Virus record (IMG/VR): IMGVR_UViG_3300009174_000247
Location: 1 to 50,574 of that record
Reading direction: 5' to 3' (one strand)
Origin: a virus
Length of the DNA stretch: 50,574 nt
The notes beneath the pieces were generated by a model that was not told where the DNA came from, ran no database searches, and worked only from the letters and a program-made list of their open reading frames with translations. Positions 32,719 through 38,512 of the stretch are shown in pieces. Both the position numbers and the translations under genes were made by a program. The number at the start of each line of letters is the position of its first letter. Position 1 is the first letter of the stretch.

Positions 32719-33607
32719 CACTGTTCCCCTCTCGAACCTTCAAATAAACCTCGTCGTTCAGCAAGTAATCAATATTCTTGCAGCGCCACGTCTTACCAGT
32801 CTTGGCATCAGGGCGATCACCCAGCATCCAGCGACAGCTAACCGAGATGTAAGCCAGGTAGTCTTCCCATGCCTTCATGCTGAAAGGCGCGTTGTCCAAC
32901 TGACGGGTAATCTTCCCTGCCTTCACCCAGAAGGTTTTGATCAGGTTCTTGCGCTTGTCGCTCAACGCTCGAACGCTAGGGCATTCCGGCAGTATCCGAT
33001 GGTAGGCATCGATAACGTCTTGGCATGAGTGGGTTGGTTTTTTCTGTTCAGGTTTTACGGCTGCTACGGCACTCTCTTTATCTTTAGATAAAGAGTTATT
33101 AGTTATATTATTGTTTATGGACAATCGTTGGACATCCGTTGGACAAACATCGCTGGAAGCCGCATTATTACTGGTGTTCGCGTTGGACAATCGCTGGACA
33201 TCCGTTGGACAATTTGGGAACTGAAAATCGTCATATTTTAGGATGGTTATCAGGCTAAATTTCCTGCCCATCGCCTCGACTTTTAGCATTCCTTTTGACT
33301 CGAAGCTGCGAAGTAAACTCTTCACTTTGTTGTCTGGGATGAATGTCTCAGTTACCAGGGTTGGGCGTCCGGTAATCATCTGCCCACGACCAACCATCAT
33401 CTCACCCACATCGGTGTTAACGACTGCAGGCGAGTAGTTTGCTTTAAGTATCAGATGGAGCCAGAGGTGTACTGCCTGTGAGTCCTTGTACAGTCTGCTA
33501 TCCATGAATTGACGGTGTATCAAGGCAAACCCCTTACCGGTTGCCTCCGGTGTCTCTACGTGGCGCTCCTGCTGCCTGTAGTCGGATAATTTTCTAACGA
33601 CGCCCAT
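32708..33607 (-). CDS. Replication initiator, O-like
   Basis: 299 residues. The N-terminal part has a winged-helix character and residues 135-180 contain the repeated segment CPTDVQRLS twice, encoded by the iterons of the origin. The C-terminal part (PFSMKAWEDYLAYISVSCRWML and TWRCKNIDYLLND) is that of the conserved phage replication proteins that follow O or DnaC-like loaders. It should bind the iterons and deliver DnaB to the origin, as lambda O does. The last 11 bases overlap dnaB. Confidence 0.82.
   Translation of the reverse strand: MGVVRKLSDYRQQERHVETPEATGKGFALIHRQFMDSRLYKDSQAVHLWLHLILKANYSPAVVNTDVGEMMVGRGQMITGRPTLVTETFIPDNKVKSLLRSFESKGMLKVEAMGRKFSLITILKYDDFQFPNCPTDVQRLSNANTSNNAASSDVCPTDVQRLSINNNITNNSLSKDKESAVAAVKPEQKKPTHSCQDVIDAYHRILPECPSVRALSDKRKNLIKTFWVKAGKITRQLDNAPFSMKAWEDYLAYISVSCRWMLGDRPDAKTGKTWRCKNIDYLLNDEVYLKVREGNSDDV
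33073..33213. other. Origin of replication: iterons plus AT-rich block
   Basis: Inside the initiator gene, the unit CGTTGGACA recurs at 33126, 33137, 33181 and 33203, with CGCTGGACA at 33192, TTATGGACA at 33115 and CGCTGGAAG at 33151. Units step by 11 bases within each array, and the two arrays start 66 bases apart. A flanking AT-rich stretch (33073-33118) completes a lambda-like origin. Confidence 0.75.
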
Positions 33608-33758
33608 CTTTCTTCACCCCTGCTTTAGCCAGTCTGAAAACGCCAATCAACCTTTCGGCGAATGGCTTATTGCATGCTGCTGTGTAGACAAGTCCGTCAG
33701 GTGAATCCGGATGCTGCCGTTCCTCTTCTTGCTTGAAATTTCTGCGTTTTCGTGCCAT
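33594..33758 (-). CDS. Small basic protein between CII and initiator
   Basis: 54 codons: MARKRRNFKQEEERQ, then an AERLIGVFRLAKAG helix and a basic end KKDGRR. GAGGTAAATA precedes the ATG. It overlaps the initiator start by 14 bases and follows the CII gene. Short basic proteins in this place are common in lambdoid phages; function unknown. Confidence 0.68.
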   Translation of the reverse strand: MARKRRNFKQEEERQHPDSPDGLVYTAACNKPFAERLIGVFRLAKAGVKKDGRR

Positions 33759-33766
33759 TATTTACC

Positions 33767-34072
33767 TCAGAAATTGATAGTGATTTGTTGTTCAGAAACC
33801 TCGGCTGCCACCGGGGTTTTCTTATTTTTAACGCCCACCGCTTTCACCACCTCCTGCACCATCATCCCCAGAGGACTAAATTCCAGTGACTTCTTGGCTA
33901 CACAGAGAATGGTTGCGATATAGCGCCAGTCTGTGCGGCTAATCTTCGATTCATGGCATCCAGCCATACGAGCGAACTCCCTGTTGCTGACCAGTGATAG
34001 CGTCAGAAGTAAGTCAGTCTCGGCCCGGTTAATCTCTTGCTCTGTTGGTTTGCTGTAGTTTGCTAATTCCAT
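33767..34072 (-). CDS. cII: CII-like transcriptional activator
   Basis: 101 residues. A helix-turn-helix (VSNREFARMAGCHESKISR, about 29-48) and a C-terminal tail EVSEQQITINF closely resemble lambda CII (EQIQMEF-type end). CII activates the establishment promoter for the repressor and the integrase promoter. Position between Cro and the replication genes and orientation agree. Residue pattern supports a CII fold; target sites were not found with confidence. Confidence 0.85.
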   Translation of the reverse strand: MELANYSKPTEQEINRAETDLLLTLSLVSNREFARMAGCHESKISRTDWRYIATILCVAKKSLEFSPLGMMVQEVVKAVGVKNKKTPVAAEVSEQQITINF

Positions 34073-34177
34073 TTCGTAGAATGTCCATGTTGGTTAAATA
34101 GTTACGTGCGGCATCCGTGGGGATTGCCACATAGATATTTGTTGGTTTTTATTTGTCACGTTCTCGGTGACGATGTA

Positions 34178-34205
34178 AGGCTTCATGCCTATTGTGAAAA
34201 GAGCG
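34178..34205 (-). promoter_or_regulatory. nutR-like site
   Basis: Minus-strand boxA CGCTCTTTTCACA (34205-34193) followed three bases on by the hairpin AGGC-ATGAA-GCCT (34190-34178) as boxB with a five-base loop. It is located between cro and cII, as nutR in lambda, and fits N-dependent antitermination. Confidence 0.68.
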
Positions 34206-34212
34206 GTGTTGC

Positions 34213-34440
34213 CTATGCTGCTTGCGGGTGTGGGAATAAGCTTGTCAGGTCAGGCCTAACTTGATACGCGGGAACCTCCCCGCCAGTAGCCACTTCAATG
34301 CGCTTGGCATTTTCGGCTGAAACTTTTTTCTTTCCGTGCAGCCACGCCCAGACTGAAGGCTGTTTAACCTCGCAGGCCTCGGCAAGCTTTTGCTGGCTAC
34401 CCAGAACGTCAATAGCCTTCTTGATTGCTTGGTTGACCAT
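34213..34440 (-). CDS. cro: Cro-like repressor (YdaS/Cro family)
   Basis: 75 residues from the ATG at 34440 (GGAGTG six bases upstream). IKKAIDVLGSQQKLAEACEVKQPSVWAWLHG is the YdaS/Cro helix-turn-helix, then a basic KKVSAENAKRIEVATGG and a short tail. It is the first gene of the rightward early transcript and competes with CI at the operators. Symbol by analogy. Confidence 0.85.
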   Translation of the reverse strand: MVNQAIKKAIDVLGSQQKLAEACEVKQPSVWAWLHGKKKVSAENAKRIEVATGGEVPAYQVRPDLTSLFPHPQAA

Positions 34441-34470
34441 AAAATCACTCCATCTCTTAAATTCAACCCG

Positions 34471-34540
34471 ATAATAGCTCAAGCTATTCATGATGTAAAT
34501 AGATGTAGCTATTTGATAATTTAATAGTCTCGGCTATAAG
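34471..34540. promoter_or_regulatory. OR region with PR and PRM
   Basis: Three operators of half-site AATAGCT: 34473-34488 (perfect), 34498-34513 (one mismatch) and 34523-34538 (weaker), centres exactly 25 bases apart. PR (minus) has -35 TTTACA (34499-34494), 17-base spacer, -10 TATTAT (34476-34471). PRM (plus) has TTGATA (34513-34518), 16-base spacer, TATAAG (34535-34540). Operators overlap both promoters as in lambda. Confidence 0.8.
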
Positions 34541-34548
34541 ATAGCGAT

Positions 34549-35253
34549 ATGAAAAAAATGACATTTTCAGAACGATTAAATCTGGCCATGAAAGAAAGTG
34601 GCTTCACTCAGGGCGCTCTTGCTGAGGCGGTTGGCATGGCTCAACCAAGCGTTTGGAAGCTTGTTAGCGGTGGTGCTAAGGGGTCAAAGAAAACAGTCCA
34701 GATAGCGAGTGTTCTTGGAGTTCGAGCCGAATGGCTAGCGGATGGTTCTGAACCCATGCGAGACGACACACCCCAACCTAAGCGGCAGGATTTAATTGGT
34801 CGCACCACGAGAGATTCCGATATTTATCGCATTGAGGTTCTGGACTTGGTAGTCAGTGCTGGCCCAGGGCGCTACATGCTTTCAGAAGCAGTTGAAGTAC
34901 TGAATGCCATTGAATTCACATCTGATCGCGCTAGGGCACTATTTGGCAGTCGATCGGCTGATGACGTAAAGGTTATGACCGTGGATGGCGACAGCATGTA
35001 CCCCACCATCAAATCAGGCGACAGACTGTTTTTCGATGTTTCTGTACGTGAGTTCACCACAGATGGTGTCTATGCATTCGTTTACGGGAAAACATTCCAC
35101 GTAAAGCGCCTGCAGATGCAAGGAACAAAGCTTATTGTTCTTTCAGACAACCCTAACCTTGAGCGGTGGGAAATCCTTGAGGATACGGAAGACCAGTTTT
35201 ACGTCATGGGCAAAGCGCTGCTGCATGAATCGATCATGTATGGAAAGCTGTAG
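34549..35253 (+). CDS. cI: CI repressor, HTH plus S24 peptidase domain
   Basis: 234 residues. Helix-turn-helix at about 16-45 (FTQGALAEAVGMAQPSVWKLVSG). Ala104-Gly105 is the RecA-stimulated cleavage site, and Ser149 (GDSMYP) and Lys186 (FHVKRL) form the catalytic pair of the LexA/S24 fold. The phage should be inducible by SOS. The ATG lies about two bases after the expected PRM start and has no Shine-Dalgarno, so the message is probably leaderless. A second ATG three codons on is possible. Confidence 0.95.
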   Translation: MKKMTFSERLNLAMKESGFTQGALAEAVGMAQPSVWKLVSGGAKGSKKTVQIASVLGVRAEWLADGSEPMRDDTPQPKRQDLIGRTTRDSDIYRIEVLDLVVSAGPGRYMLSEAVEVLNAIEFTSDRARALFGSRSADDVKVMTVDGDSMYPTIKSGDRLFFDVSVREFTTDGVYAFVYGKTFHVKRLQMQGTKLIVLSDNPNLERWEILEDTEDQFYVMGKALLHESIMYGKL

Positions 35254-35336
35254 CCAGTGGGCTGATGAGCTGGATAGAGAGATGCGAAGATTAGGCCAAA
35301 GCGAATCATACATACCGCAATACAATAATTAAGCAC

Positions 35337-35364
35337 TTGAAATAGAACGAAAATTTCATATAGA
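35337..35364 (+). promoter_or_regulatory. Candidate promoter ahead of HipA-like gene
   Basis: -35 TTGAAA (35337-35342), 16-base spacer, TATAGA (35359-35364), RNA start near 35372, about 15-20 bases before the HipA-like start. It lets the pair be expressed apart from PRM; a match of moderate quality. Confidence 0.4.
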
Positions 35365-35388
35365 AATCTTATAGGATTAGGAAGCAGC

Positions 35389-36234
35389 ATGAAATCGATC
35401 TGGGGGAGTGTAAAAGTGGAACAAGATGATGACTTTGAAGAGAATATCGAACCAGAGCAAGGTCACTTATTTGAACTAGAATTTAGCGATTACACCCCAT
35501 CAGGTCTAGGAACCGCTCATCTATCTGGATTTGCGATCGCTAGTGATGAAATGGAGTATGCAGTTAAAAGCACAGGTGGTAATACGCCATTCCCAGTCCA
35601 AAATCCTGCACAGGTTCCAGCCGCAGAATGGTTTTGTACAAACCTGGCGGAAAGGTGCGGTATCGCCACGCCAGTATGTAAAATATTGAAATGTGTAGCC
35701 AATGGAGAGTACGTTTTTGGCTCACGAATTGAACATGCAGCATGGAAGTCTGGGTTAAACGCTGCTCAATGGGTCCAATTACTCAGTAACGCCAATGAAT
35801 CACTAAAAAAGCAACTATGGGCTATCTATGCGTTCGATCAGTTCGTACACAACGTAGATCGGCATCTTAACAATTACCTTTACATGCATAATAGTCGTGG
35901 GCAAGTAATTGTAAAAACCTTCGACTTTAGCCTTAGTTCATTTGTTTTAGGGTGGCCACGGAGTACATCCGTTACCTTGCCATCGGATTCAAACACAAAC
36001 GTAAACTGGCGAGCGGCTAAGACGCTAATCGGAGAAACAGATGAGCTCAGATTGGTTGCACTTAATGTTCTTGACAGGCTTGAAATGATTGGTGTAGGTA
36101 CCATATCTGATATACTGGATACTATGCCAAGGGACTGGTTACCACCAATGCAAAAGGATTTGATTTTGCGATGGTGGGGCAGCCCAGAGAGAGTTGAGAG
36201 ATTAAATGCAATAAGATTGGAGATAACTTCATGA
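35389..36234 (+). CDS. HipA-like kinase domain protein
   Basis: 281 residues. FVHNVDRHLNNYLY (152-165) holds a catalytic Asp157 and metal-binding Asn162; Asp179 in TFDF binds metal; Lys60 in YAVKSTGG is a likely ATP-contact residue. This is the core of the HipA-like kinase fold (HipA_2 group) without the N-terminal subdomain of classic HipA. AGGAAG precedes the start. Its stop overlaps the DUF3037 start (ATGA), so the two are one unit. It lies downstream of cI, in the rexAB position. No HipB-type antitoxin is adjacent. Substrate unknown; toxin or defence role is inference. Confidence 0.82.
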   Translation: MKSIWGSVKVEQDDDFEENIEPEQGHLFELEFSDYTPSGLGTAHLSGFAIASDEMEYAVKSTGGNTPFPVQNPAQVPAAEWFCTNLAERCGIATPVCKILKCVANGEYVFGSRIEHAAWKSGLNAAQWVQLLSNANESLKKQLWAIYAFDQFVHNVDRHLNNYLYMHNSRGQVIVKTFDFSLSSFVLGWPRSTSVTLPSDSNTNVNWRAAKTLIGETDELRLVALNVLDRLEMIGVGTISDILDTMPRDWLPPMQKDLILRWWGSPERVERLNAIRLEITS

Positions 36235-37037
36235 AAACATTCAAGTACAGCTTAATCAGAATCACACCTAATCTAGAGAAAGGTGAGACGATTAATGTTG
36301 GTTTGATTGTGTACCATGATGCTAGCATTGACGTCAGAATGCTCAACTCCGTTTCAAAGTTGAAGGCGATAGATAAATGCCTAGACCTCGAGTACCTGGA
36401 GGAGGTGCATCAATCTTTTGTTGACCTATCCAATTCAATCGGTGATGTAACTCTGTTGCCAAAGTTGTTCAAGGGATCATTAACTATATCTGACTTTGGT
36501 GCGTTTACGGTTCAACCAGCTGAAAATTATGATAAAAAAGTTTCAGAACTAATGGACAGATTGGTGAACTCTCAGCGTGCTCGGCACAGAAGAGTGAATA
36601 GAAAGGTATTTTTTGACATTAAAGACACTTTTGTACAACACGGAATTTTCAGTAAGTTTGATGAAGACCTTTATCATCATAAGGTAGTTTCTAACTACCC
36701 CATCAGTGCCGATGAGGGACTGTCAGCAGACTTTTTGTTAAAGAATGGAAAATACCATCTTACGGAAACAATTGATTTCCGTTCAGAAAACATTAAAAAG
36801 CAGATGGGAGAAGCAGCTCTAAGTGCGCTCACTATTAGCAAGGCAATCGAGATTTTCCACTGCAACATTGACTCTTTCGTTATTTATGCCGCTGAGACCA
36901 CTGCGCAAGAGAAAGGAGCGCGGCACCAGCTGAACCTGCTAGAAAAGCACACGAACAACCTAATTAATGCCTTTAGTAAAGAAGATATGAATAAGTATTA
37001 TGAAAAAATGCTAAATGCCGCATCAATGATACAGTAA
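36231..37037 (+). CDS. DUF3037 protein, partner of HipA-like kinase
   Basis: 268 residues. The N-terminus MKTFKYSLIRITPN followed by KGETINVGLIVYHD is the DUF3037 signature. The rest has two basic segments (about 115-130) and a helical C-terminus with QLNLLEKHTNN. No catalytic motif is evident. Encoded directly after the kinase with a four-base overlap, both AT-richer than neighbours; DUF3037 and HipA-type kinases are often found adjacent, as I recall, but no function is known to me. Likely substrate, regulator or effector of the kinase. Confidence 0.8.
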   Translation: MKTFKYSLIRITPNLEKGETINVGLIVYHDASIDVRMLNSVSKLKAIDKCLDLEYLEEVHQSFVDLSNSIGDVTLLPKLFKGSLTISDFGAFTVQPAENYDKKVSELMDRLVNSQRARHRRVNRKVFFDIKDTFVQHGIFSKFDEDLYHHKVVSNYPISADEGLSADFLLKNGKYHLTETIDFRSENIKKQMGEAALSALTISKAIEIFHCNIDSFVIYAAETTAQEKGARHQLNLLEKHTNNLINAFSKEDMNKYYEKMLNAASMIQ

Positions 37038-37040
37038 CTA

Positions 37041-37066
37041 AACCCGGCCACCGAGCCGGGTTTTTT
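37041..37066 (+). terminator. Terminator after cI-HipA-DUF3037 unit
   Basis: Perfect 8-bp stem AACCCGGC/GCCGGGTT (37041-37048, 37055-37062), six-base loop CACCGA, then TTTT. It closes the repressor operon before the pL region. Confidence 0.88.
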
Positions 37067-37225
37067 GTGCCTGCCGATCCCCTAGCCCCCACCGCACCTG
37101 CACTAAATCCGACCTCCTGCACTTTTTCGCTGCCCCGACATGCCTATACACACCTGATTTTGGCTAGGTGCGATGGTTTTTTGATGGGTGAGGTGAAAAT
37201 AAATAACCTTGTATATCAACATAAT
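37067..37225. other. Non-coding stretch upstream of OL
   Basis: Between the terminator and OL I see no credible gene. Open frames here have poor starts and no recognisable motif. It is likely spacer and untranslated DNA. Confidence 0.5.
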
Positions 37226-37288
37226 AATAGTCAAAGCGATAATAATATAGTTATAGCTATTTACATGAAATATAACTGCGCCTATTAT
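37226..37288. promoter_or_regulatory. OL region with pL promoter
   Basis: Plus-strand promoter TTTACA (37260-37265), 17-base spacer, TATTAT (37283-37288), the same hexamers as PR. Operator-like sites AATAGCT-type lie at 37226-37241, 37246-37261 and 37271-37286. The last two overlap -35 and -10 by two and four bases, exactly as the PR sites do. Confidence 0.72.
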
Positions 37289-37355
37289 CAACCCATCGAA
37301 ACGAAACGCGATGCGGCAGACGGAACTACCAGCCGCGCCAGACATGAAGTCAGGC

Positions 37356-37385
37356 TGCTCATTGTAACAACGAGCTAGGAAGCTC
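37356..37385 (+). promoter_or_regulatory. nutL-like site
   Basis: TGCTCATTGTAACA (37356-37369) resembles boxA, and GAGCT-AGGA-AGCTC (37372-37385) is a boxB-like hairpin just after it. It lies between pL and N, as expected; the boxB loop is four bases and the boxA has an insertion relative to consensus. Confidence 0.55.
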
Positions 37386-37473
37386 TACGGAAGGTACCGA
37401 TAACGTACCGAACCTAACCGATTGGTGAGTGCCCTGTTGCGACAGGTCAGCCACCAATCATATAGGAGTCATC

Positions 37474-37800
37474 ATGACAACGATTAGCTATGGCAAGTCG
37501 GTAAAGCCTGCAAGAAAAGAGAACGCAGCAGCTCGCCGTCATCAACGCCGCGCAGCAGAGGCGATTGATAAAAAATTGGTTGAGTCGCGGATCTGCAAAG
37601 CTTTAGGGCAGAAACCGGAAGAAGTTACCAACGTGAAAAAGGTGGCAGTCAGTAATAAGCGCTCTGTATCAAGTCGTGCCGAGTTAGTGACGCTAACGCA
37701 CTTTGTTAAACCGGTAAGTAGCCCTGACAACCGGTGCCTGCCAGAGGTAGCAATGTTCGCTGCAGGGTTCCGCAAGAGCGAGAAAATAACGGCACGTTAA
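37474..37800 (+). CDS. N: N-type early antiterminator (P22 gp24-like)
   Basis: 108 residues from the ATG at 37474 (AGGAG seven bases upstream). MTTISYGKS at the start, an arginine-rich motif AARRHQRRAAE (about 18-28) for boxB RNA binding, and the C-terminus VAMFAAGFRKSEKITAR all match P22 N. It allows early transcripts to pass terminators. Located just after pL and nutL. Confidence 0.88.
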   Translation: MTTISYGKSVKPARKENAAARRHQRRAAEAIDKKLVESRICKALGQKPEEVTNVKKVAVSNKRSVSSRAELVTLTHFVKPVSSPDNRCLPEVAMFAAGFRKSEKITAR

Positions 37801-37816
37801 AATCTCGCTGTACGAA

Positions 37817-38308
37817 TTAGGACTTGTGATCACCTTTAAGTGTGGCAACAGGAATTTGATAAGTTGCTTTACATAAATGGCATAACAAATATGCCACTCC
37901 ACTCATAGGTGCGACCTGTCTTTGAAACTGAAGCACAGATTTTTTTCGGTTATTGTGACATGCGGTACAAAGATAAATTACGGGTTGATCGCCCTTCTCA
38001 GATTCTTTAATGCGGTAGAGAAAAGAGCCAGGCGTAGGACTTATAAGCTCATACTTAGAAGATTCGAGTTCCCAATTCTCTTTCTGTTTTTTCTCATCTT
38101 CAAGCTCAATAATTCTCTCCTTAGCAGATATGAGTAGTGACTGGATATCCATTAGCTTTGTAAGTAAATCAAACGTCTTTTCCTTGACGTTATAGTCTAC
38201 ATGCAGCGCCTGAATGTCCTTTACGGCATCAACTGTTGCTTTTATAGCGCCGCCTGCACCTGAAACAGCATCCGTAATTCTACTAACTATGCCTTTATTC
38301 TCTGACAT
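37817..38308 (-). CDS. Zinc-binding moron, unknown function
   Basis: 163 residues from the ATG at 38308. The N-terminal 100 residues are helical with an IVSRITDAVSGAGGAIKATVDAVKD segment (possibly membrane-interacting) and a coiled-coil-like ERIIELEDEKKQKENWE. The C-terminal part has CTACHNN and CHLCKATY, a CxxC...CxxC zinc ribbon. It is opposite to the N operon, in the place of lambda sieB, and AT-rich. Its direction and position suggest a prophage-expressed gene, possibly for exclusion; there is no direct evidence. Confidence 0.66.
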   Translation of the reverse strand: MSENKGIVSRITDAVSGAGGAIKATVDAVKDIQALHVDYNVKEKTFDLLTKLMDIQSLLISAKERIIELEDEKKQKENWELESSKYELISPTPGSFLYRIKESEKGDQPVIYLCTACHNNRKKSVLQFQRQVAPMSGVAYLLCHLCKATYQIPVATLKGDHKS

Positions 38309-38324
38309 TTTAATCACTCTCTAA

Positions 38325-38368
38325 CTGTAGGGGTGATTGAAGTTTATCCGATTTCTCGCTGTAGGGGT
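38325..38368. repeat. Direct repeat upstream of zinc moron
   Basis: CTGTAGGGGT occurs at 38325-38334 and again at 38359-38368, 34 bases apart, just ahead of the minus-strand gene. It may be an operator for that gene. Confidence 0.55.
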
Positions 38369-38470
38369 ACAACGGGAATCCTCGCCGCCTGAGAGGATTA
38401 ACAAAGCAGGCAACTAATTATATTCATTGCGAATTAACACGGATGTTATGTCTGGGGAAAGCGCAAGCAC

Positions 38471-38494
38471 AAAGCCTCTTCGGAGGCTTTTCTT
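38471..38494 (+). terminator. Terminator in left operon
   Basis: Stem AAAGCCTC/GAGGCTTT (38471-38478, 38483-38490) with UUCG loop and T-rich tail. It lies after N and would be read through only with N. Confidence 0.75.
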
Positions 38495-38512
38495 TTAACT
38501 GGAGGGTGCAGC

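What the first reader, a model, noticed from the sequence alone, without database searches (positions are those of the whole stretch)
35389..37037. HipA-like kinase plus DUF3037 pair in the rexAB position
The two genes overlap by four bases, follow cI directly, and end at a strong terminator. Lambda keeps its exclusion genes rexAB in the same slot, expressed from the repressor promoter in the lysogen. The kinase keeps its core motifs (Asp157, Asn162, Asp179) but has no HipB-type antitoxin beside it and lacks the N-terminal part of classic HipA. DUF3037 has no known function to me. Together they could be a prophage-encoded phage-defence or toxin-antitoxin unit. Role is inference.
Basis: partly seen in the sequence, partly recalled or inferred. 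Interest (0 to 1): 0.82.

Follow-up and report, generated by a model that had tools for sequence, protein, structure and literature searches.

The report
HipAD kinase-antitoxin pair beside cI
A prophage-like virus genome carries, in the spot where phage lambda keeps its exclusion genes, a kinase toxin plus its probable neutraliser of a kind (HipAD) that others have recently shown to protect bacteria from phages, so it is a new copy of a known defence system in a known cargo slot.

Summary
A 281-aa HipA-like kinase (35389-36234) and a 268-aa DUF3037 protein (36231-37037) overlap by four bases, follow cI, end at a terminator hairpin, and lie before a pL-like site and an N gene: the rexAB slot. 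The window pair belongs to a divergent branch: its kinase scores 31 bits against Pfam HipA_2, a second lineage 258. The pair is tightly linked (35 of 36 viral contigs found by the kinase; 14 of 14 full-length DUF3037 hits in 394 genomes) and follows a repressor gene in 32 of 35 contigs. Two E. coli prophages with 97-99% identical flanks carry the two HipAD lineages (20-25% identical) in exactly this slot. Added here: that swap, slot counts, and a predicted PD-(D/E)XK-like domain in the DUF3037 protein lacking the usual catalytic lysine. No function was tested for this copy; trigger and kinase target are unknown. Verdict: new member of a known kind, moderate interest.

The parts
34213..34491 (-). 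Cro-type regulator (YdaS/P22_Cro-like HTH), divergent from cI
   Evidence: Pfam YdaS_toxin 5e-19, P22_Cro 7.9e-7; PHROG_35 'transcriptional repressor' 5.3e-23
34549..35253 (+). CI-type repressor (HTH + S24 peptidase), first gene of the presumed lysogenic transcript
   Evidence: Pfam Peptidase_S24 8.4e-15; PHROG_4 transcriptional repressor 2.4e-55
35389..36234 (+). HipA-like Ser/Thr kinase, presumed toxin (HipAD 'A')
   Evidence: HipA_C 1.1e-7, HipA_2 2.4e-7; PHROG_3162 1.4e-52; AlphaFold2 model pLDDT 84.1, pTM 0.83 matches CtkA, HipA, HipT, PI4KII; K60, D157, N162, D179 conserved
36231..37037 (+). DUF3037 protein, presumed neutraliser and possibly sensor (HipAD 'D'); N-terminal DUF3037, C-terminal (about 122-267) predicted PD-(D/E)XK-like fold
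   Evidence: DUF3037 8.4e-10; PDC-M66B 6.8e-9; PHROG_5137 7.7e-59; model pLDDT 84.7, pTM 0.54; VIA-align PspGI Z 10.1, BsoBI Z 9.5
37040..37063 (+). Intrinsic terminator hairpin followed by TTT (37064-37066), end of the cI-kinase-DUF3037 unit
   Evidence: fold -16.9 kcal/mol, z -3.12; not listed by the consensus scan
37260..37288 (+). pL-like promoter (TTTACA-17-TATTAT) in a stretch sharing short words with the cro/cI intergene (possible OL)
   Evidence: consensus match only, not above shuffle expectation
37429..37800 (+). N-type antitermination protein; marks the far edge of the cI-N slot
   Evidence: Pfam N_peptide PF25694 1.5e-16

Best explanation
The pair is a HipAD (PDC-M66) type anti-phage toxin-antitoxin unit carried as lysogen-expressed cargo in the cI-N slot of a lambdoid prophage. 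Inferred working: in the lysogen the two genes are transcribed with cI and stop at the terminator; the DUF3037 protein binds the kinase and keeps it quiet; infection by a competing phage upsets the complex, perhaps because the nuclease-fold domain of the DUF3037 protein meets phage DNA or a DNA-protein intermediate; the freed kinase phosphorylates an essential host protein (for HipA and HipT the targets are aminoacyl-tRNA synthetases) and the cell stops growing before the phage matures. Shown here: gene content, order, overlap, terminator, kinase core, tight linkage of the two genes, recurrent location behind repressors, cassette replacement. Shown by others on relatives: kinase needed for defence, DUF3037 deletion toxic, kinase mutant inactive. 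Inferred: transcription from the repressor promoter, sensing step, target, that this particular copy is active.
For: Kinase+DUF3037 = PDC-M66; functional data on relatives, passages read (PMC12548924; PMC13092281). Linkage: 35 of 36 IMG/VR kinase loci have the DUF3037 gene directly downstream; 14 of 14 full-length PHROG_5137 hits among 394 genomes of one order have the kinase directly upstream. Location: repressor upstream in 32 of 35 pairs, repressors in 10 clusters at 50% identity; 5 of 5 E. coli loci opened and the K. pneumoniae phage-plasmid likewise. Intact kinase core in 22 aligned kinases and HipA/HipT/CtkA-like fold. Two HipAD lineages exchange in the same slot with 97-99% identical flanks.
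Against: No experiment on this copy. DS-6B is described as DUF3037+DUF1829, and no DUF1829 match was found in the window, in the 9 members of A1, or in the other relatives scanned. PDC-M66A is only a weak hit for the kinase (3e-4), and PDC-M03A scores better (2.5e-5). Neither protein is found in 50,697 INPHARED phages. The tested trigger phage and the host target are not known for any member from what I read.
Confidence: 0.8

Rival explanations
1. A toxin-antitoxin module that mainly keeps the prophage in the population (addiction or lysogeny maintenance), with phage defence a side effect or absent.
For: The TA-like arrangement (co-translated kinase and partner) and the reported toxicity of DUF3037 deletion in a relative would serve addiction as well. 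Location in a lysogen-expressed slot suits it.
Against: Relatives defend against phages in plasmid tests. The slot in sister phages holds other defence-like genes, among them BstA-type.
Confidence: 0.12
2. The DUF3037 protein is itself the effector, an active nuclease with a PD-(D/E)XK-like domain, and the kinase regulates it.
For: The C-terminal domain model ranks with restriction enzymes PspGI and BsoBI (Z 10.1 and 9.5) and CRISPR ancillary nucleases Can2/Cdn1; an acidic residue at 167 and E179 are kept in 22 of 22.
Against: The usual catalytic lysine two residues after E179 is Ile or Leu in 22 of 22. In relatives the kinase mutant loses defence and loss of the DUF3037 gene is toxic, the opposite of an effector. 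Fold match without a Foldseek hit at E 0.001, pTM 0.54.
Confidence: 0.04
3. A regulator pair for the lysis-lysogeny switch rather than a defence unit, as reported for lambda RexA.
For: Position beside cI and a predicted DNA-binding-like domain in the DUF3037 protein; RexA is described as a DNA-binding protein that biases the switch (abstract listing of PMC11077077).
Against: The pair works with repressors of 10 different clusters and also occurs away from any annotated repressor, on a Rahnella and a Komagataeibacter plasmid, the latter beside a type I restriction system.
Confidence: 0.04

Closest known systems
HipAD / DS-6 (DefensePredictor; PMC13092281, passages read)
   Same: Two genes, HipA-like kinase followed by a DUF3037 protein without HipB similarity; reported as prophage defence by Brenes and Laub 2025 (reference 35 there; that paper was not held and nothing of it was read).
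   Different: DS-6B is described as DUF3037+DUF1829; DUF1829 was not detected in the window protein. Sequence distance to DS-6 is unknown.
PDC-M66 (PADLOC) and the HipA/DUF3037 pair beside Retron-Sda1 (PMC12548924, passages read)
   Same: Same two families; PDC-M66B hits the window protein at 6.8e-9; toxin-neutraliser logic.
   Different: Window kinase is only a weak PDC-M66A hit (3e-4); no retron genes are known beside it; Sda1 partner is said to have a C-terminus like the DNA-binding protein of type III-A1 retrons.
HipA_2/DUF3037 lineage B in E. coli lambdoid prophages (L199, L215; 288 of 5426 genomes)
   Same: Same two families and the same slot; identical repressor protein accession as in L033.
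   Different: About 25% (kinase) and 20% (DUF3037) identical to lineage A, the window's lineage.
HipBA (E. coli HipA) and HipBST
   Same: Kinase fold and core residues; HipA rows at VIA Z about 10.6-12.2 including Shewanella HipA, HipT 10.3-12.1.
   Different: No HipB or HipS gene, no HipA N-terminal part, different partner family.
RexAB of lambda and BstA of BTP1
   Same: Same position, between cI and N, in the presumed repressor transcript (PMC8585504 passages).
   Different: Unrelated protein families.

Membership tests
HipAD / PDC-M66 | HipA-like kinase gene | tested here: met
   HipA_C and HipA_2 over their cut-offs; fold match to HipA/CtkA/HipT. PDC-M66A itself only 3e-4
HipAD / PDC-M66 | DUF3037 gene directly downstream | tested here: met
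   DUF3037 8.4e-10, PDC-M66B 6.8e-9, four-base overlap
HipAD / PDC-M66 | Intact kinase catalytic residues | tested here: met
   K60, D157, N162, D179; equivalence to HipA K181, D309, N314, D332 by motif spacing; the HipA numbering is recalled and the letters were checked in the fetched sequence. Sequence profile alignment to HipA alone was weak (probability 8.4)
HipAD / PDC-M66 | C-terminal DUF1829 / DNA-binding part of DS-6B | tested here: inconclusive
   No DUF1829 match; a PD-(D/E)XK-like fold is predicted there
HipAD / PDC-M66 | Defence against phage, kinase toxic without partner | not testable with these tools
   Reported for relatives only
HipBA toxin-antitoxin | HipB-type HTH antitoxin gene beside the kinase | tested here: not met
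   Neighbour is DUF3037; HipB tblastn against the window best E 0.65 elsewhere
HipBA toxin-antitoxin | HipA N-terminal subdomain | tested here: not met
   281 aa, Pfam lists only HipA_C and HipA_2; model aligns mostly to HipA from residue about 121-125 on
RexAB | RexA and RexB protein families | not tested
   No RexA or RexB sequence was compared; the two proteins have other family matches. Only the location is shared

The most novel reading that the evidence does not exclude
The DUF3037 protein is antitoxin and phage sensor in one: its C-terminal domain is a restriction-enzyme fold that lost its catalytic lysine and now reads phage DNA (or a DNA end or protein-DNA intermediate) and releases the kinase. 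Two long-separated HipAD lineages have settled in the same cI-N slot because only lysogen-timed, repressor-linked expression lets a prophage carry a kinase toxin without killing its own lytic cycle.
Probability: 0.2. Interest if true: 0.6.

Novelty: new member of a known kind. Interest (0 to 1): 0.36.

Why it matters
It adds a divergent, prophage-borne branch to HipAD, gives clean cassette boundaries for cloning, and shows two HipAD lineages replacing one another in otherwise near-identical prophages, a natural matched pair for asking what each lineage protects against. The predicted lysine-less nuclease fold gives a testable idea for how HipAD senses phage, which the passages I read leave open.

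Tried and rejected
Retron link: I did not search the window for a retron RT or ncRNA gene; nothing is claimed beyond the absence of such a gene between cI and N in the ORF list. DUF1829: looked for and not found.

Solved relatives by sequence: none significant for either protein (best E 0.73 and 0.99).

Conserved promoter or operator in the cI-kinase gap: alignment of nine upstream regions showed no block shared by all. dN/dS: synonymous sites saturated, no ratio obtained for five of six comparisons, not used. Rfam on 33500-38500: no match up to E 1.

Weak neighbours in the fold search of the DUF3037 model: Rag GTPases, CheY-like and ERCC1/XPF-type chains also appear at Z 7-7.7, so only the rows above about 8 were leaned on. 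Families missing from the fold lists are not treated as excluded. The complex of the two proteins was not modelled (the two structure jobs went to the single proteins).

Kinase profile hits without a partner: 68 of 394 genomes match PHROG_3162, but only 14 have PHROG_5137; the other 54 match at 5.1e-17 or weaker and are presumably HipA-like kinases of other systems; this was not followed. In one search a fifteenth genome (G079) matches PHROG_5137 over 64 positions at 9.2e-4 inside a 936-aa frame and was set aside as unrelated. L130 has a kinase cut short and no DUF3037 gene.

Full report
What is there. The window is a 50,574-base IMG/VR virus record with siphovirus-type head, tail and tape-measure genes on the minus strand, and an integrase at the other end. 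Around 34-38 kb it has a lambdoid immunity region: cro-like gene (34213-34491, minus), cI (34549-35253), kinase (35389-36234), DUF3037 gene (36231-37037), terminator hairpin (37040-37063; z -3.12), pL-like site (37260-37288; the scan as a whole finds no more sites than shuffles), N_peptide gene (37429-37800; 1.5e-16). The pair therefore lies between cI and N, where lambda has rexAB. Escherichia phage HK639, whose CI is 59% identical, has the same annotated layout with other genes in the slot: cI, three unknown genes, terminator, pL.

The two proteins. Pfam gives HipA_C 1.1e-7 and HipA_2 2.4e-7 for the first, DUF3037 8.4e-10 for the second; NCBIfam gives none; PADLOC gives PDC-M66B for the second (6.8e-9) and, weakly, PDC-M03A (2.5e-5) and PDC-M66A (3e-4) for the first. 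In alignments of 22 relatives each, K60, D157 and N162 of the kinase are invariant and D179 is kept in all 21 with a letter there. The kinase model (pLDDT 84.1, pTM 0.83) matches H. pylori CtkA (Foldseek 6.6e-8), HipA (7.0e-7) and Legionella HipT (1.5e-5), VIA Z 15.3 for CtkA and about 10.6-12.2 for HipA entries, with PI4KII and CotH kinases between. The N-terminal part of HipA is missing.

The DUF3037 protein model (pLDDT 84.7, pTM 0.54) has two parts. Residues 122-267 rank with PD-(D/E)XK-type enzymes: PspGI Z 10.1 (rmsd 3.0, 121 aligned), BsoBI Z 9.5, VC1899 8.6, Can2 8.4. Foldseek alone gives nothing at E 0.001 or better (best 2.0e-3), and GTPase and CheY-like chains appear at Z 7-7.7, so this is a prediction. 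At the expected active-site positions, 167 is Asp or Glu (8 and 14 of 22) and E179 is invariant, but position 181, where the lysine would be, is Ile or Leu in 22 of 22. I read this as a nuclease fold used for binding rather than cutting. It agrees with the AlphaFold3 DNA contact reported for DS-6B.

Linkage. A scan of IMG/VR with a 9-member kinase alignment gave 36 contigs. In 35 the next gene is the DUF3037 gene, overlapping; the exception, L130, has a truncated kinase. Several of these contigs are near-duplicates. In 394 genomes of the order of G001 (the genome of the Citrobacter youngae locus), 14 have a full-length PHROG_5137 match, and in all 14 a PHROG_3162 match lies directly upstream on the same strand (one, G180, has a TAG inside); a fifteenth PHROG_5137 match is a 64-position hit set aside. 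PHROG_3162 alone matches 68 of 394, the other 54 at 5.1e-17 or weaker. Three plasmids of 72,556 carry a DUF3037 relative at E 1e-5, each with a kinase gene beside it. No INPHARED phage record does, so the family is seen in prophages and viral contigs, not in that isolate collection.

Location. Taking the longest + strand ORF that ends within 450 nt upstream of the kinase, 32 of the 35 paired contigs have a repressor-like protein there. These proteins form one BLAST component of 25 distinct sequences, window included, in 10 clusters at 50% identity; eight representatives were checked and carry HTH_3, six of them also Peptidase_S24. The three exceptions have a DinI-like gene (L110), an SRAP gene (L116) and no recognisable gene (L119). 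Five E. coli loci opened (L032-L034, L215, L216) and a K. pneumoniae phage-plasmid show repressor, kinase, DUF3037 in this order; the Rahnella and Komagataeibacter plasmids do not.

The slot. From 80 IMG/VR contigs with a CI related to the window's (56-85%; the best 80 of 154 kept) plus the window, four were too short after cI; among the remaining 77 the first + strand gene within 400 nt belongs to 36 different clusters, and 8 contigs have none of at least 80 aa. The window's pair is in 4 of 77. Three others (L199-L201) carry a second kinase+DUF3037 lineage: HipA_2 3.1e-77, DUF3037 1.1e-24 (best of the two members matching), PDC-M66A 2.1e-13. Among 67 cluster representatives PADLOC also reports BstA (2 members), PDC-S13, PDC-M63, PtuA- and OLD-like ATPases, and Pfam reports HicA, HicB and YafO (counts per family only, first 25 of 153 and of 29 families seen). 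That the cI-N region of lambdoid phages is a mosaic hotspot and that bstA and rexAB sit there is already in print (PMC8585504, passages), so this part extends known facts.

Cassette replacement. E. coli B19374 (L033, lineage A) and EC9 (L215, lineage B) carry the same repressor protein accession. Their DNA is 97.4% identical over 3.6 kb up to four bases before the end of cI, and 98.5% over 4.0 kb starting 18-27 nt after the DUF3037 stop codon, with no match between. The kinases in between are 25% and the DUF3037 proteins 20% identical over aligned positions. L032 and L033 show the reverse: the same HipAD with the cro-cI part exchanged. Lineage A is in 24 of 5426 complete E. coli genomes and lineage B in 288, by blastn at E 1e-5.

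What is known. Of three papers holding 'DUF3037' two are relevant, both read in passages. PMC12548924 describes HipA-like kinase plus DUF3037 beside Retron-Sda1: defence against Bas51 is lost without the kinase, does not need the retron parts, and deletion of DUF3037 is toxic. PMC13092281 describes DS-6, renamed HipAD, with kinase and DUF3037+DUF1829 proteins; a kinase mutation abolishes defence; it says the system had been found independently in E. coli prophages by Brenes and Laub 2025, a paper not held of which I read nothing. It may well report this slot. Whether the tested pairs are lineage A, B or another is open.

Mechanism. The most likely reading is a HipAD toxin-antitoxin defence unit expressed with the repressor in the lysogen. 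Gene content, order and conservation are shown here; toxicity, neutralisation and defence are shown by others for relatives; transcription from the repressor promoter, sensing through the nuclease-fold domain and the kinase target are inference.

Verdict. The finding is correct and its functional guess is well supported, but it is a member of a named and tested system in a known cargo slot. What is added is a divergent branch, the lineage swap, the slot census and a structural idea for sensing.

Noticed in passing
L199:4795-6368 (also L200, L201): A second, far diverged HipA_2+DUF3037 pair in the same cI-downstream slot of phages with a related repressor; its E. coli relatives are in 288 of 5426 genomes.
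   Followed up: partly
L135-L214 and the window, downstream of cI: 36 different first-gene clusters in 77 contigs with related repressors; many of the 67 representatives scanned are unannotated by what was shown, a pool of untested candidate defence genes.
   Followed up: partly
window 37817-38317 (-): 166-aa protein on the opposite strand just past N: PHROG_1244 (3.1e-31, unknown function), C-terminal cysteine pairs, only weak zinc-ribbon hits.
   Followed up: no
L031:5218-6807: Kinase and DUF3037 genes beside a type I restriction system on a Komagataeibacter oboediens plasmid; here the two genes do not overlap.
   Followed up: no
L110:531-1838 and L116:3199-4789: HipAD pairs preceded by SOS-linked genes (DinI-like; SRAP) instead of a repressor.
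   Followed up: no
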